Virus record (IMG/VR): IMGVR_UViG_3300047996_000020
Coordinates: 1-22,519 of that record
Reading direction: 5' to 3' (one strand)
Source: a virus
DNA length: 22,519 nucleotides
Each line of letters begins with the position of its first letter. Positions within the stretch are counted from its first letter, which is position 1. The notes below the pieces were generated by a model, which was not told where the DNA came from, did no database searches, and saw nothing but the letters and a program-made list of their open reading frames with translations. The position numbers and the translations under genes were made by a program. Positions 56-11,923 of this stretch are shown one piece after another.

Positions 56-289
56 ATGAAACCTACAATACAATCAATTCGCGAAAGCCTAGCACTCGGC
101 CCTTATTTCTTCTCTAAAGACACGCTAAAATTCTTCGGGCAAACCATGCATTCATTCAAAGTCGAATGGCACGACAAAGAGCAAGGCATTATCCGCCTAT
201 TCGCTCCCATGAAAAGCGACGGCAAGCGCGTAGGCACTACTGAGCGCCTCATTGACGTTTCAGACCCCGCCAACTTTAAAGAAGTATAA
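56..289 (+). CDS. Small conserved phage protein (77 aa), early arm
   Basis: No function is assigned. The central part (about residues 22-60: DTLKFFGQTMHSFKV, then IRLFAPMKSDGKRVGTTERL) resembles, from memory, a family of short phage proteins with a 'kFFG-T-r-f-V ... aP---dGk--G-T-r-f' pattern of unknown role. It looks like a small soluble alpha/beta protein with no membrane segment. The ATG follows an A/C-rich leader without a Shine-Dalgarno sequence, like most genes here. It is the first gene visible in the window and is followed by a hairpin at 301-324, so it may be its own short transcription unit or the end of one that begins outside. The coding call is fairly sure; the function is open. 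Confidence 0.7.
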   Translation: MKPTIQSIRESLALGPYFFSKDTLKFFGQTMHSFKVEWHDKEQGIIRLFAPMKSDGKRVGTTERLIDVSDPANFKEV

Positions 290-2760: not shown

Positions 2761-3783
2761 ATGAGTATAAGAAAGAGTGGGAAAAACGACAACAAGTTCA
2801 TGGCTGACTTCATGGTCAAAGGCGTAAGATACCGCCGCCAATGGCCTACCTATGAGGAAGCAGCCGCGTGGGAGTCAGAGCTAAAAAAGAGAATACGCCT
2901 AGGGATACCCTACACGGAACTCTTGGAAGGCACAGGTGACTTCATCACATTAGGCGAGCTAGCCGACAAGACGATGATACGTTATTGGGAGGGAACCGCC
3001 AACGAAAGCACCATGCGTTCCAACGTAAAGATTGTTCTTGATCACTATGGACAAGGCTATGACGTCTCTCAGCTAGACGTTGCGGCAGTGGACACCCTTA
3101 TATTCGCCCTTGAGAAAAAGGGACTAGCAAAGGCTACTATAAACCGCCGCTTGTCTTGCCTGTCTAAGATCTTAACCTTCGGGGTAGATCGGGGGTTCCT
3201 TACACACAAGCCTAAGATAGAACAGAAGAAGCTCTCCAACACTCGCATGAGGTTCCTTACAGAAGAGGAAGAGTACGAGATTGTTGACGCGCTCGAAGCC
3301 TCTGGAAGGGATGACTTCGCGAGATTCTTTGAATGGCAAATTGATACAGGTATGCGACCTATAGAGGCTCGCCATATACCGCAAACCGCCGTGAGAGAAG
3401 ATCCTGAGCACGGCTGGTTGGTTGATCTGAGCAAGACCAAGAACAACTATCCGCGCACCATCTGGCTCACCGAGAGGGCTTACAAAGCTTACCTTGCTTT
3501 ATCGGATGAACAGTTCCCATTTGCTAGGTTCACCGAGGCTAAGATAGCGAGCACTTGGAAGTTCATACGGGAAGCACTTAACGAAACCGCCGACAAGGAC
3601 TTTGTGTTCTATCTTACAAGACACACCTGTGCGTCGAGATTAGTGCAGCGTAACGTGCCTCTCCAAATCGTCAAAGAGTGGATGGGTCACCGTAACTTTG
3701 AGATGACCTTGAGGTACGCTAAGCTTACTCCCACTAATATGCTTGACGCAAGGAACGCCCTTCAACAATCTCACATACACTAA
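2761..3783 (+). CDS. int: Tyrosine recombinase (phage integrase)
   Basis: A 340-aa site-specific recombinase expected to catalyse attP x attB integration. The N-terminal arm-type region (1-60: YRRQWPTYEEAAAWESELKK) is followed by a SAM-like core-binding domain (about 65-150) and the catalytic domain (about 160-340). Catalytic residues visible: Arg199 in DTGMRPIEA, Lys227 in SKTKN, Arg287 in YLTRHTCASRL, His310 in EWMGHRNFEM and the tyrosine nucleophile Tyr319 in LRYAKL. The His usually three before the second Arg is Tyr284, a substitution seen in other family members. Length and domain order are full. The ATG at 2761 is the first in frame. Integrases near the left end, upstream of the RNA polymerase, are known in several marine T7-like phages. 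Three AAACCGCC motifs lie in the gene. Confidence 0.95.
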   Translation: MSIRKSGKNDNKFMADFMVKGVRYRRQWPTYEEAAAWESELKKRIRLGIPYTELLEGTGDFITLGELADKTMIRYWEGTANESTMRSNVKIVLDHYGQGYDVSQLDVAAVDTLIFALEKKGLAKATINRRLSCLSKILTFGVDRGFLTHKPKIEQKKLSNTRMRFLTEEEEYEIVDALEASGRDDFARFFEWQIDTGMRPIEARHIPQTAVREDPEHGWLVDLSKTKNNYPRTIWLTERAYKAYLALSDEQFPFARFTEAKIASTWKFIREALNETADKDFVFYLTRHTCASRLVQRNVPLQIVKEWMGHRNFEMTLRYAKLTPTNMLDARNALQQSHIH

Positions 3784-3851
3784 GCACTGCTTCGATTATT
3801 CCCTACAGCCGTAGCTAGACTACAACGCTAGGGGATACACTAACCAACAAC

Positions 3852-3881
3852 GTGTCCTCATTTAATTACATCTGAGGACAC
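3852..3881 (+). terminator. Hairpin after the integrase
   Basis: A perfect 9-bp stem GTGTCCTCA (3852-3860) with TGAGGACAC (3873-3881) closes a 12-base loop. No T tract follows (ATAAACTC), so it may be a weak terminator, an RNA-stabilising hairpin or a protein-binding inverted repeat. It lies 69 bases after the integrase stop. The rest of the 3784-3941 gap shows no gene. Confidence 0.4.
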
Positions 3882-3941
3882 ATAAACTCACGCACTCAAA
3901 GTTAAACAAGGGTTGATTTCGGGGGCGGGCAACTAATCACT

Positions 3942-4121
3942 ATGAAAACAAACGAATCAGAATACAAAAGACTTGAGGATACCATTGAGCAGCTAAGGGC
4001 TGAAAACGCCGAGATCCGTAAGGACAAAGAGCGGCTCGACTGGATATTGAATAACTACACTCTGTCTTGCGGCATCACTCGTGAAGAGGTCGATGAGAAG
4101 ATAGCTGAGTTAGGTAAATGA
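3942..4121 (+). CDS. Small coiled-coil protein (59 aa)
   Basis: Residues about 4-33 form a clear heptad coiled coil (ESEYKRLEDTIEQLRAENAE, then IRKDKERLDWIL), ending in the short domain NNYTLSCGITREEVDEKIAELGK. The C-terminal part (R-L-D-W-I-L ... I-T-R-E-x-V-D) resembles a motif I know from small phage proteins with no known role. It has the usual SD-less context (aactaatcact before ATG). It precedes the four repeat-protein genes by 28 bases and may share their transcript. Confidence 0.6.
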   Translation: MKTNESEYKRLEDTIEQLRAENAEIRKDKERLDWILNNYTLSCGITREEVDEKIAELGK

Positions 4122-4149
4122 GCTAAATAGGAACTCTGATATAATATAG

Positions 4150-4536
4150 ATGAAAAAACTAAGCGAAACATACAAAGAACTAGGGATTGCGTTCAGCTTC
4201 CCCATCAAGATTAAAGACGCCAATGGTAAACAGACCTACTACGAGGAGAGTAATGGCTTCTGGCGTAAGTATGAGTACAATGCTGACGGCAATGAAACTT
4301 ACTACGAGAACAGCACTGGATACTGGCATAAGTATGAATACAATGCTGACGGCAATGAAACCTGCTGCGAGAACAGCACTGGCTACTGGCATAAGTCTGA
4401 ATACGATGCTGACGGCAATGAGACTTACTACGAGACCAGCACTGGCTACAAGCGAGGAACACCTAAGTCAGCTAGGACTTGTGAGGGTAAAGTTGTCGAA
4501 GTTGACGGAATTAAATACAAACTAAAAGCACTATGA
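4150..4536 (+). CDS. YD/RHS-like repeat protein A (128 aa)
   Basis: First of four paralogs. Layout: a conserved N-terminal segment (MKKLSETYKELGIAFSFPI), then three 21-residue repeats of the form TYYENSTGYWHKYEYNADGN from about residue 28 to 92, a shortened cap repeat, and a conserved tail (about 103-128: GTPKSARTCEGKVVEVDGIK, then YKLKAL). The repeat resembles the YD repeat of RHS proteins (Y-x-Y-D-x-x-G-N-x-T), which forms beta-strands, so a small all-beta protein is expected. No signal peptide. The function is unknown to me; similar unannotated repeat proteins occur in marine phages. The repeats are nearly identical in DNA, so their number could change by slippage. Its stop overlaps the next start by ATGA. 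Confidence 0.75.
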   Translation: MKKLSETYKELGIAFSFPIKIKDANGKQTYYEESNGFWRKYEYNADGNETYYENSTGYWHKYEYNADGNETCCENSTGYWHKSEYDADGNETYYETSTGYKRGTPKSARTCEGKVVEVDGIKYKLKAL

Positions 4537-4853
4537 AACCACTAAGCGAAACACTGACAGAACAGGGGATTGCATTTACATTCCCTATTACGATTAAAGA
4601 TGCCAATGGTGATCGGACTTACTTCGAGTACAGAATAGGCGACTACTATAAATGTGAGTTTGATGCCAATCGCAAACAGACTTACTACGAGACCAATGAC
4701 TACTGTGTGAAGTGGGAGTATGATGCCGAGGGCAATCTAACTTACTACGAGAACAGCGATGGACGCAAGGTAGGCACACCACGTTCCGCTAAGACCTGCG
4801 AAGGTAAAGTTGTCGAGGTCGATGGCGTTAAATACGAACTAAAAGCACTATGA
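4533..4853 (+). CDS. YD/RHS-like repeat protein B (106 aa)
   Basis: Second paralog, with the same N-terminal segment (MKPLSETLTEQGIAFTFPIT) and the same tail ending VDGVKYELKAL. It has only two repeats plus the cap. They are more diverged than in the neighbours: TYFEYRIGDYYKCEFDANRK, then TYYETNDYCVKWEYDAEGN, which is one residue short of the usual unit. The start overlaps the stop of protein A by four bases (ATGA), which points to translational coupling. Its length differs from protein A by one repeat unit less one residue. Confidence 0.75.
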   Translation: MKPLSETLTEQGIAFTFPITIKDANGDRTYFEYRIGDYYKCEFDANRKQTYYETNDYCVKWEYDAEGNLTYYENSDGRKVGTPRSAKTCEGKVVEVDGVKYELKAL

Positions 4854-5299
4854 AACCACTAAGTGAAACACTAACAGAACTAGGGATTGCATTCAGCTTT
4901 CCTATTGAAATTAAGGATGCCAATGGCAATCGGACTTACTACGAATACAGTAATGGATGCTGCTGGAATGGTGAGTATAATTGCAAAGGAAACGAGACTT
5001 ACCACGAAGACGGTAAGGGCTACTGGTTTAAGCTTGAGTATGACTCCAATGGCAACGAGACTTACTACGAGAACGGCACAGGCTATTGGTACAAGCGCGA
5101 GTATGACGCCAACGGCAATCGGACTTACTTCGAGAACATCTATGGGAACTGGTATAAATATGAGTATGACTCCAACGGCAATCGGACTTACCACGAGAAC
5201 AGCGATGGCACAAAAAGAGGTACCCCGAAGTCCGCTAAAACCTGCGAAGGTAAGGTCGTTGAGGTAGACGGAATTAAATACAAACTAAAAGCACTATGA
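4850..5299 (+). CDS. YD/RHS-like repeat protein C (149 aa)
   Basis: Third and longest paralog, with four full 21-residue repeats plus the cap. Units include TYHEDGKGYWFKLEYDSNGN, TYYENGTGYWYKREYDANGN and TYFENIYGNWYKYEYDSNGN. N-terminal segment MKPLSETLTELGIAFSFPIE and tail VVEVDGIKYKLKAL are shared with A and B. It is exactly 21 residues longer than protein A, which equals one repeat. It is coupled to B by an ATGA overlap. Best guess is a beta-rich binding or structural protein; no enzyme motif is visible. Confidence 0.75.
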   Translation: MKPLSETLTELGIAFSFPIEIKDANGNRTYYEYSNGCCWNGEYNCKGNETYHEDGKGYWFKLEYDSNGNETYYENGTGYWYKREYDANGNRTYFENIYGNWYKYEYDSNGNRTYHENSDGTKRGTPKSAKTCEGKVVEVDGIKYKLKAL

Positions 5300-5664
5300 A
5301 ACTACTAAGCGAAACATACAAAGAACTAGGGATCGATTGTGCGTTCCCTATCGAGATTATGGAAGCCAATGACAGAGTGACCTACTTCGAGGACTGTGAC
5401 GATTACTGGGAGAGGTACGAGCGAGATGTCAAGGGGCGGCCAACTTACCACGAAGACAGTAATGGCTTCTGGCAGAAGTGGAAGCGTAATGCAGATGGTG
5501 ACGTTCTTTATTATGAGGACAGCACAGGCGTAAAGAAAGGCATACCTGAATCATTAACCAAACCACTAACCGAATCGAAGGAGCGTTGTGCCTTCTGCGA
5601 TAAGCCCGATGTGTACCTCAAGGGTCTCTGCCCTGTGTGTTTCGAGGATCACTACGGGAATTAG
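5296..5664 (+). CDS. Repeat protein D with C-terminal zinc ribbon (122 aa)
   Basis: Fourth paralog (MKLLSETYKELGIDCAFPIE), with two diverged repeats and a cap (about 29-82). The tail shared by A-C is replaced by a four-cysteine motif: Cys98-x2-Cys101-x10-Cys112-x2-Cys115 (CAFCDKPDVYLKGLCPVC), a likely zinc ribbon. It is coupled to C by an ATGA overlap. The domain swap suggests that the repeat part and the tail act as separate modules. Zinc ribbons often bind nucleic acid or protein, but the target here is unknown. The stop codon overlaps the first copy of the repeat that begins the RNA polymerase control region. Confidence 0.75.
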   Translation: MKLLSETYKELGIDCAFPIEIMEANDRVTYFEDCDDYWERYERDVKGRPTYHEDSNGFWQKWKRNADGDVLYYEDSTGVKKGIPESLTKPLTESKERCAFCDKPDVYLKGLCPVCFEDHYGN

Positions 5665-5920: not shown

Positions 5921-5930
5921 TAAATTGACT

Positions 5931-8351
5931 ATGGACACGCAGCTCACACAAGACGAACTCAACACTGACATGACCACCGTAGGCGTGGGACGCTACCGTA
6001 ATAAGGTAGAGGGAGCCCGTGCTCGTGGTATGGAGAGTGAGACATCTTATGGTCAGCGTTTAATACGTGGTGCGTTGCCTTCATATATCAAGGCTATTGA
6101 TGACGTAAAAACAAAGTGGCGTGGATTTAAGAACAATGCTCGGTGGCAGTTAGACCTCCTAGAGATGCCCTCCGAGAAGATTGGGTTCCTTGTTATCCGT
6201 ACTGTCTTAGACCAGCTTACACAGAACTCCAAGATGACCGCTATGTGTACCAAGGTAGGCAACGTCGTCGACTACCAGCGTCGCTCCGAGCATCTCGTTC
6301 GTAACAACCCAAAGGGCGAAGGGATTGTTCTAGGGGCTACCCGTAAGAGTGGCTGGCAAGCTACCAAGAACCACATCCGTCTAAGTACCAAGCACGAGGT
6401 AGAGAAGGGACTCATGGAAGAGATCCCGTCTTGGACACGTAGAGACATAGCAGCAACAGGACTTAACCTTGTAGAACTCCTTCGGGATGTCACAGGGATT
6501 ATTGAGTACAGGTTCATTACTGATACAGGCAGACGCAACCCTACAAGGTACGTCACAGCCTCTCCAGAGACTCTCAAGTGGATTGATGAGTTCAACTACC
6601 ACAAGGAAATCATAAGCCCCTTCTGGCTCCCTACAGTGGATACACCAATGGAGTGGAAGAACGTGTGGGAAGGTGGCTACAAGACAGAAGAGACAGACCT
6701 CCCAAAGCTTCCGTTCATCAAGTCTACCAACATGGACTTCCTCCGAGGTATCGAAGGTAAGATTGAAGAGCCTATGGAGGCTTGTAACCTTATCCAGCAG
6801 ACACCTTGGAAGATTAACGAGGATGTCCTGAAGACAATGCAGTGGGCGTGGAAGAACTCCGTAAAGGTCGGTGGGCTTCCTAGTCGTGACGATGAAGTGA
6901 TGCCTGACATCCCTGATGACTTCTACGACAACAAACTAAGCAACCTCCAGTGGCGCACGATGGCTTCAGGTGTTCACAAGCGTAACATGAGTACACGCTC
7001 AAGACGCTTACTGGTAGCCAAGGTGCTTTACCTAGCAGAGAAGCTTACAGATAGTCGGTTCTTCTATCCGTCCCACTGTGACTTCCGAGGTCGTGTATAT
7101 AACATCCCTGCCTTCCTAGGTATCCAAGGCCCTGATATGTGTCGGGGGTTACTTCGGTTTGCTAGACCTCAACGTATTAAGACAGCAACAGACCGCAAGT
7201 GGTTAGCTATTCAAGGTGCTAACACTTGGGGCTACGATAAAGTCACACTCGACCAACGTGCTGAGTGGGCTGAGAACTTTTCCAAGGACGCTATCCGTAT
7301 TGCCGCTAACCCTACCAAGGAGTTACTATGGACAGAAGCGGGTGACCCTTGGCAATTCCTTGCGTGGTGCTTTGAATGGGCCACGCTACAGAACACGGGT
7401 AAGCTAGATACCTTCCTCCCAGTGAATATGGATGCCACCAATAACGGCCTTCAGATTCTATCTATGCTTACTCGTGACCCCTACGGGATGACCGCTACCA
7501 ATGTGTTGCCTACAGACAAGCCAGCAGACATCTACGGGGTGGTTGCAAAACAAGCGGAGGTAATCCTGAAGAAACAAGCAAGCGAGGGAGACGCTATTGC
7601 AAACGCTTGGGTAAACTTTGGGATCGACCGTAAGACAACCAAGCGCCCCGTAATGTGTTACTCGTACGGGCTAACTGAATACAGCAATCGGTTGTACATC
7701 GCTGATTGGTATGAAGACCAGATACACGGTGAAGGACGTACTAAACCTTTTGACGATAAAGAGAAGTATCTAGCCGTTCACATTTTAGCGAAGGCGGTAT
7801 GGACAGGGATTGAGAGCGTCCTAGAGAAACCAAAGGAATGTATGAAGTGGTTTCAGGACTGTTCCGCTTTGCTTACCGAGGCTGAATTACCTGTATCTTG
7901 GGTTACTCCTAGTGGCTTCCCTGTTCACCAAGAGTATTTCAACTTCACAAGTAAGAACATCAAGACTTGGATTAGCGGAACAGCTACTCACATTCGTTTC
8001 CGTGAGAACGACGATAAGCTTTCCAAGGTACGCCAGCGTAACGGAGTGAGCCCTAACTTTGTTCACTCACTAGATGCTGCTGCTCTCCACAAGACAGTCA
8101 TCAAAGCCAACAAAGAGGAGGGTATTTACGACTTTGCTTTCATTCACGATAGCTACGGAACACACGCTACAGGATGTGAAGCTCTGAGTAAAAGTTTGCG
8201 AGATGTGTTTATTTCTACATTTAGTGTTGACCTCCTTCGGGATTGGAAACATCAATTAGAACAGCAGTCGGGATTAGAACTTCCTGAGCCGCCAGAATAC
8301 GGCACTGCTGACATCTCCCAAATTAAAAATAGCACGTATTTCTTCAGTTAG
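5931..8351 (+). CDS. T7-like single-subunit DNA-directed RNA polymerase (806 aa)
   Basis: This enzyme transcribes the phage middle and late genes. Key motifs: CDFRGRVYNIPAFL (template-strand motif); motif A with Asp501 in PVNMDATNNGLQ; motif B with Lys571 and Tyr579 in TKRPVMCYSYG, spaced as Lys631 and Tyr639 of T7; PNFVHSLDAAALHKT; and motif C His739-Asp740 in FAFIHDSYG. All catalytic residues are present. At 806 aa it is shorter than T7's 883, mostly in the N-terminal promoter-binding part, so promoter specificity cannot be inferred from T7. A TTG six bases upstream is in frame, but the ATG at 5931 is preferred. The preceding control region holds candidate promoters. Confidence 0.97.
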   Translation: MDTQLTQDELNTDMTTVGVGRYRNKVEGARARGMESETSYGQRLIRGALPSYIKAIDDVKTKWRGFKNNARWQLDLLEMPSEKIGFLVIRTVLDQLTQNSKMTAMCTKVGNVVDYQRRSEHLVRNNPKGEGIVLGATRKSGWQATKNHIRLSTKHEVEKGLMEEIPSWTRRDIAATGLNLVELLRDVTGIIEYRFITDTGRRNPTRYVTASPETLKWIDEFNYHKEIISPFWLPTVDTPMEWKNVWEGGYKTEETDLPKLPFIKSTNMDFLRGIEGKIEEPMEACNLIQQTPWKINEDVLKTMQWAWKNSVKVGGLPSRDDEVMPDIPDDFYDNKLSNLQWRTMASGVHKRNMSTRSRRLLVAKVLYLAEKLTDSRFFYPSHCDFRGRVYNIPAFLGIQGPDMCRGLLRFARPQRIKTATDRKWLAIQGANTWGYDKVTLDQRAEWAENFSKDAIRIAANPTKELLWTEAGDPWQFLAWCFEWATLQNTGKLDTFLPVNMDATNNGLQILSMLTRDPYGMTATNVLPTDKPADIYGVVAKQAEVILKKQASEGDAIANAWVNFGIDRKTTKRPVMCYSYGLTEYSNRLYIADWYEDQIHGEGRTKPFDDKEKYLAVHILAKAVWTGIESVLEKPKECMKWFQDCSALLTEAELPVSWVTPSGFPVHQEYFNFTSKNIKTWISGTATHIRFRENDDKLSKVRQRNGVSPNFVHSLDAAALHKTVIKANKEEGIYDFAFIHDSYGTHATGCEALSKSLRDVFISTFSVDLLRDWKHQLEQQSGLELPEPPEYGTADISQIKNSTYFFS

Positions 8352-11695: not shown

Positions 11696-11923
11696 ATGAA
11701 AACAATACCAATAAAAGTAAGCATAAAGTCAGCTAATCTTGACTGGAATCCAGTCTTCAACAGCCTCCAAGTGGGCGTCGATGATGAGGCTACTGGTTCC
11801 TTCCTCGTCATATACGGAAACGACTCTCAAAACGACGGTGCTAAAATTTCCCTCGATTGGGAAGAATGGGACGAGCTCGTAAAAGTTGTTCGTAAGTATC
11901 GTAACGAATGGGAGTGGAAATAA
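11696..11923 (+). CDS. Hypothetical protein (75 aa)
   Basis: Unrecognised small acidic protein. Alternating strands are suggested by IPIKVSIKSANLDW and GSFLVIYGN, and the C-terminal helix is WEEWDELVKVVRKYRNEWEW. It ends five bases before the DNA polymerase start, so it probably shares its transcript. A polymerase accessory role is possible from position only. Confidence 0.55.
   Translation: MKTIPIKVSIKSANLDWNPVFNSLQVGVDDEATGSFLVIYGNDSQNDGAKISLDWEEWDELVKVVRKYRNEWEWK

What the first reader, a model, noticed from the sequence alone, without database searches (positions are those of the whole stretch)
4150..5664. Tandem array of four translationally coupled YD-repeat paralogs
Four genes share an N-terminal segment (LSET-KELGIAFSFPI type) and 21-residue repeats, with 3, 2, 4 and 2 full repeats in order. 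Each junction is a 4-base ATGA overlap, and the bases around each junction are almost the same. The lengths of the first and third proteins differ by exactly one repeat. Both repeat number and gene number could therefore change by recombination. Seen in sequence: layout, repeats and overlaps. Known: YD/RHS repeats form beta structures. Inference: the array may be a fast-varying binding or decoy set (for example against host defence, or for surface variation). I know no described function.
Basis: partly seen in the sequence, partly recalled or inferred. Interest (0 to 1): 0.72.

Follow-up and report, generated by a model that had tools for sequence, protein, structure and literature searches.

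The report
Swappable tandem beta-repeat phage genes
A marine phage, probably of Verrucomicrobia, carries four back-to-back copies of a small gene for an open beta-sheet repeat protein, and close relatives swap, add and lose these genes and their repeats, as expected of a fast-changing set of binding proteins whose target is still unknown.

Summary
In detail: four paralogous genes (128, 106, 149, 122 aa) at 4150-5664, joined by 4-base ATGA overlaps, with 21-residue repeats (3, 2, 4, 2). The repeats are of YD/RHS type: two proteins pass the NCBIfam YD_repeat cut-off, and a confident model of gene 3 (pLDDT 93) matches RHS and teneurin shells best. Here the sheet is short and open, without a shell or toxin domain.

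About 70 virus contigs and phage P8625, which infects a verrucomicrobial host, carry relatives in arrays of 1 to 12 genes. The family was found in only 1 of 384 genomes of one bacterial class.

The guess of fast change by recombination is directly supported. Two contigs 98% identical upstream and 95-97% identical from the last array gene onward carry a different array interior, exchanged at CACTATGAAA gene starts. Two 99.4%-identical contigs differ by exactly one 63-base repeat. Scaffold residues are under strong purifying selection; about six positions per repeat vary freely.

Genes 1-3 share a C-terminal hairpin also found on MORN-type repeat proteins, suggesting a common handle with exchangeable binding surfaces. 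The molecular role is inferred: I favour accessory binding proteins aimed at variable host or rival-phage factors; no target was found.

The parts
3846..3941 (+). Left flank ending in CACT|ATGAAA. Its last part (AAACAAGGGTTGATTTCGGGGGCGGGCAACTAA) is followed by different gene content in different phages
   Evidence: 98% identical in L106 and L132, shared with L005 (94%) and L008/L101; the contents after the joint differ
3942..4121 (+). 59-aa coiled-coil-like gene that travels with the array as a cassette
   Evidence: About 99.5% identical block 3940-4147 in L020/L126 between unrelated flanks; absent at this site in L106/L132
4130..4149 (+). Leader GGAACTCTGATATAATATAG directly before gene 1; extended -10 promoter-like (TGATATAAT)
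   Evidence: Exact copy once in the window, none expected by chance; variants before family genes and other small genes in other contigs. Promoter activity is inferred
4150..4536 (+). Gene 1: YD-type repeat protein, 128 aa, 3 full repeats, shared tail (codons 4480-4533)
   Evidence: YD_repeat_2x 17.4 bits against cut-off 15.8
4533..4853 (+). Gene 2: YD-type repeat protein, 106 aa, 2 full repeats, shared tail (codons 4797-4850); ATGA overlap with gene 1
   Evidence: member of alignment A3
4850..5299 (+). Gene 3: YD-type repeat protein, 149 aa, 4 full repeats, shared tail (codons 5243-5296); ATGA overlap with gene 2
   Evidence: Model pLDDT 93; RHS/teneurin fold matches; YD_repeat_2x 17.9 bits
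5296..5664 (+). Gene 4: YD-type repeat protein, 122 aa, 2 full repeats, zinc-ribbon-like C-terminus (codons 5587-5661) in place of the tail; ATGA overlap with gene 3
   Evidence: shared at 97% with L106/L132, where it is also the last array gene; zinc-ribbon matches below cut-off
11696..11923 (+). 75-aa gene whose relatives travel inside or beside the arrays in other phages (in L106/L132 between the two family genes)
   Evidence: 89% DNA identity with L106 3890-4147; next to arrays in many loci

Best explanation
This is a phage accessory locus of exchangeable gene cassettes. Each gene encodes a short open YD-type beta-sheet: a fixed scaffold with about six freely varying side chains per 21-residue repeat, usually ending in a shared hairpin tail. 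Shown by comparison of phages: the array changes by exchange of whole genes at gene-start joints (CACTATGAAA), by exchange inside repeats, and by gain or loss of single 63-base repeats. Inferred: the proteins are made early in infection, the varying sheet binds changeable host or rival-phage factors (defence proteins, or host proteins that are taken over), and the tail docks to a common partner. A set of diverse copies would widen the range of targets or hosts.
For: Exchange of the array interior between contigs that are 98% (left) and 95-97% (right) identical, with both edges at CACTATGAAA. One-repeat difference between 99.4%-identical contigs. Arrays of 1-12 genes, mostly with 4-nt overlaps. 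Ends of near-identical blocks lie near CACTATGA 21 times of 208 against 1.9 expected. Scaffold positions pN/pS 0.13, variable positions 1.02 in 88 independent pairs. RHS-type open sheet. The same tail on MORN-type repeats. Location before the phage RNA polymerase in the window and in several relatives, or among DNA-replication genes in others. Family confined to phages in the genomes searched.
Against: No target, expression or phenotype is known. The variable positions are not above neutrality, so an arms race is not proven. P8625 manages with one copy. No association with known defence genes was found; the array proteins tested have no PADLOC match, and host genomes of these phages are not known. 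The breakpoint null does not separate the joint from gene starts in general.
Confidence: 0.45

Rival explanations
1. Drift: recombination between similar short genes keeps adding and removing copies, and the proteins have a mild, redundant role (for example stabilising a phage or host protein) without an arms race.
For: Variable positions evolve at the neutral rate; copy number is 1 in P8625; a decayed copy persists in L007 and L012.
Against: Strong constraint on the scaffold (pN/pS 0.13); the interior is replaced between phages that hardly differ elsewhere; two different sheet types share the tail.
Confidence: 0.22
2. Superinfection exclusion or phage-phage conflict: the proteins block competing phages and vary because the competitors vary.
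For: The window encodes an integrase, so lysogeny is possible; promoter-like leaders could let the cassettes be expressed on their own; contents differ between close relatives.
Against: P8625 is described as lytic (PMC4642752) and no integrase is mentioned in that paper; no signal peptide or membrane segment is evident in the sequences.
Confidence: 0.15
3. Virion-associated adhesins or decorations that vary for host attachment.
For: YD-type and other aromatic-rich repeats occur in surface proteins; weak profile similarity to glucan- and choline-binding repeats; a few BFVD fold matches are to minor tail proteins.
Against: The genes lie in early or DNA-replication regions, not with structural genes; there is no tail-fibre or secretion feature.
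Confidence: 0.1
4. Fragments of an RHS-type toxin or effector gene.
For: Fold and sequence resemblance to RHS repeats.
Against: Only 2-4 repeats per gene, no shell, no toxin domain; all four genes are intact and the short form is conserved in about 70 contigs.
Confidence: 0.03

Closest known systems
YD/RHS repeat proteins (TIGR01643, PF05593; RhsA, teneurins, Tc toxin BC components)
   Same: Repeat motif (YDxxGN) and beta-hairpin sheet; best PDB fold matches; NCBIfam repeat cut-off passed by genes 1 and 3
   Different: 106-149 aa with 2-4 repeats, no closed shell, no toxin or receptor domains; extra N-cap and C-terminal tail; tandem overlapping genes in phages
Verrucomicrobia phage P8625 gp42 (YP_009221585.1, hypothetical protein)
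   Same: Full-length homologue, 60.5% identity, same cap, repeats and tail; 4-nt overlap with the next gene
   Different: Single copy, between a helicase and a PAPS reductase gene, in a phage described as lytic
MORN repeat proteins (Morn1, MORN4)
   Same: Single-layer beta-hairpin repeats; the DGPA-repeat phage proteins that share the tail have this fold
   Different: The window proteins match RHS repeats first, not MORN; no sequence link except the tail
Phage morons and boundary-sequence mosaicism (short conserved boundary sequences, discussed in PMC3029335)
   Same: Gene cassettes exchanged at short shared sequences at gene boundaries; promoter-like leader before the first gene
   Different: Here one joint, CACTATGAAA, precedes many unrelated small genes and also joins the paralogues within an array

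Membership tests
YD/RHS repeats | Match to a curated repeat profile | tested here: met
   TIGR01643 17.4 and 17.9 bits (cut-off 15.8) for genes 1 and 3; Pfam RHS_repeat below cut-off, 13-16 bits against 22
YD/RHS repeats | RHS-type beta-hairpin sheet | tested here: met
   AF2 model pLDDT 93; 7q97 E 2e-7, TM 0.61 normalised to the query
RHS toxins and effectors | Large closed shell with a C-terminal toxin domain | tested here: not met
   Proteins of 106-149 aa, 2-4 repeats, no toxin-domain match in Pfam or NCBIfam
Ocr-like DNA-mimic anti-restriction proteins | Strongly acidic protein | tested here: not met
   Net charge -3.3 to -9.4 at pH 7, pI 4.7-5.5
Glucan/choline-binding repeats | Match to cell-wall-binding repeat profiles | tested here: not met
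   No Pfam match; profile search of the PDB only E 1.1-5.9 for such chains
Anti-defence proteins | Inhibition of a host defence system | not testable with these tools
   Needs an experiment. PADLOC holds defence rather than counter-defence models; no hit to the array proteins tested
Moron | Gene present in one phage and absent or replaced in a close relative | tested here: met
   Window against L106/L132
Moron | Own promoter and terminator | tested here: inconclusive
   Recurrent promoter-like leader before gene 1; no transcription data, and terminators were not examined

The most novel reading that the evidence does not exclude
These phages keep a recombining repertoire of binding proteins: interchangeable beta-sheets (YD-type or MORN-type) with freely varying residues on a common docking tail, so that new target specificities arise by shuffling repeats and genes, somewhat like a set of variable receptors in a virus.
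Probability: 0.25. Interest if true: 0.85.

Novelty: new variant of a known kind. Interest (0 to 1): 0.62.

Why it matters
It is a compact natural example of repeat proteins whose number, order and residues change between phages that are otherwise nearly identical, with the exchange points visible. If the sheets bind host defence or takeover targets, the arrays would be a ready catalogue of such targets in a bacterial phylum whose phages are almost unknown.

Tried and rejected
Ocr-like DNA mimicry: charge too low. Housekeeping or described phage family: Pfam, PHROGs and NCBIfam give nothing beyond YD repeats. Host-gene origin: 1 of 384 genomes, and that match lies at the end of a 14 kb contig. 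Positive selection at the variable positions: an all-pairs count gave values above 1 at several positions, but independent pairs gave 1.02, so it is not claimed. Assigning the variable residues to one face of the sheet: no coordinates were available and the strand register is ambiguous, so not claimed. Tail as a DNA element only: most tail codons vary synonymously, so it is kept as protein; only the final GCA-YTA-TGA behaves like a conserved joint. Literature searches for YD-repeat phage arrays and hypervariable tandem paralogues found nothing on this family.

Full report
What is there. Four genes at 4150-4536, 4533-4853, 4850-5299 and 5296-5664 (+) overlap by ATGA. All begin with an LSET..LGI..FPI cap (gene 2 has QGI) and carry 3, 2, 4 and 2 full 21-residue repeats. 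Genes 1-3 end in CEGKVVEVDGxKYxLKAL; gene 4 ends in a CxxC...CxxC segment. DNA repeats are 69-76% identical over 126-300 nt. The array lies between an integrase (2761-3783) and a T7-type RNA polymerase (5925-8351), in a 22.5 kb linear virus record.

What kind of protein. Pfam RHS_repeat is below its cut-off; NCBIfam YD_repeat_2x is above its cut-off for genes 1 and 3. The AlphaFold2 model of gene 3, from 56 family members, has mean pLDDT 93 and shows a short helix followed by beta-hairpins. Foldseek against the PDB puts RHS effectors, teneurins and Tc BC components first (best E 2e-7, TM 0.61 on the query), then OspA single-layer sheets. The best viral match is a 152-aa protein at 60% identity, which by length and identity is P8625 gp42, followed by uncharacterised phage proteins. 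With 2-4 repeats such a sheet cannot close into a shell (inference).

Who has it. Among the named phages searched only P8625, a phage of Puniceicoccales strain IMCC8625, has it, as a single gene between a helicase and a PAPS reductase gene. A scan of viral contigs gave 69 loci. One of them (L061) holds a more distant tandem group with another N-terminus, and L067-L071 match mainly through the tail. One bacterial hit came from an Opitutae MAG; a search of 384 genomes of its class found only that one. So a verrucomicrobial host is likely for the window but not proven. Tailed proteins come mostly in lengths of 86, 107, 128, 149 and 170 aa, that is 65 + 21n. Arrays hold 1 to 12 family genes, mostly with 4-nt overlaps; many contigs are fragments, so counts are lower bounds.

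How it changes. L106 and L132 match the window at about 98% up to the first ATG of the array region. From gene 4 onward L106 matches at 95.3% and L132 at 97% over the part of gene 4 that it holds. Between these points the window has the 59-aa gene plus genes 1-3, whereas L106 and L132 have one 107-aa family gene (about 75% identical to the window's) plus a 75-aa gene. Both edges fall in CACTATGAAA. The 59-aa gene of the window recurs at about 99.5% identity in L020 between unrelated flanks. L006 and L013, 99.4% identical, differ in one family gene by exactly 63 bases, the rest of that gene being identical. Over all near-identical blocks 208 ends were counted: 21 lie near CACTATGA against 1.9 expected from nearby positions, and 68 near TATGA against 13.8. 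This null does not separate a recombination joint from gene starts in general. CACT is also the commonest tetramer before ATG in these loci (44 of 431 genes), and few genes have a Shine-Dalgarno-like sequence (59 of 431), so the joint may be a translation signal that doubles as short homology.

What is conserved. In the repeat, positions 3, 4, 6, 8, 12, 16, 18 and 21 are nearly fixed and positions 2, 5, 7, 9, 13 and 15 vary, position 13 most. In 88 independent unit pairs pN/pS is 0.13 for the first group and 1.02 for the second. The scaffold is thus maintained as protein; the variable positions are free or diversifying, and these data cannot tell which. In the tail most codons vary synonymously, but the Ala codon two before the stop is GCA in all 61 distinct tails.

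The shared tail. A degenerate scan for the tail found it on the YD-type family and on DGPA-repeat proteins. The DGPA model (pLDDT 91) matches MORN proteins best. Two kinds of single-layer sheet with one tail suggest a common docking part; this is inference.

Leader. GGAACTCTGATATAATATAG precedes gene 1 (4130-4149). Variants precede family genes and other small genes in several contigs, usually with GGAAC 22 nt before the ATG, which puts TATAAT at -12 to -7 relative to the ATG. That position would fit leaderless transcripts; it was not tested. In the window the spacing is 20 nt.

Mechanism and verdict. Shown: tandem YD-type genes, cassette exchange, repeat gain or loss, protein-level constraint. 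Inferred: early accessory binding proteins aimed at variable host or rival factors, docked by the tail. Rivals are drift with a mild role, superinfection exclusion, and adhesins. The fold is known; the array of small genes with exchangeable interiors was not found in the papers searched (most subscription journals are not in that library), so I rate it a new variant of a known kind.

Noticed in passing
L027 380-3048, L044 496-1729, L063, L072; window 4130-4149: A leader GGAAC-N4-ATATAATA at a nearly fixed 22 nt before the ATG of many different small genes, with TATAAT where a -10 box would start leaderless transcripts.
   Followed up: partly
431 ATG genes of 100 aa or more in the window and related loci: Only 59 have a Shine-Dalgarno-like sequence upstream, and CACT is the commonest tetramer before ATG, so these phages may start translation without Shine-Dalgarno pairing.
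   Followed up: partly
L128 92-460 and 1711-2217; L067-L071: Phage proteins with DGPA repeats fold like MORN proteins and end in the same tail as the window genes.
   Followed up: partly
L061 3186-5693: A second tandem group of four genes with similar 21-residue repeats but an unrelated N-terminus (MKRLIRKILREE type).
   Followed up: no
L007 3534-3893 and L012 333-692: A family gene that keeps the cap, loses most repeats and runs into an unrelated sequence, present in both contigs: a decayed copy inside a large array.
   Followed up: no
window 152-246 (-): ARAGORN calls a 95-nt tRNA-Met on the minus strand, overlapping an ORF on the other strand; possibly a false call.
   Followed up: no
window 5587-5661; L004 4117-4590; L005 4796-5143: The zinc-ribbon-like end of gene 4 also ends unrelated coiled-coil-like proteins in other phages, so this end is modular too.
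   Followed up: partly
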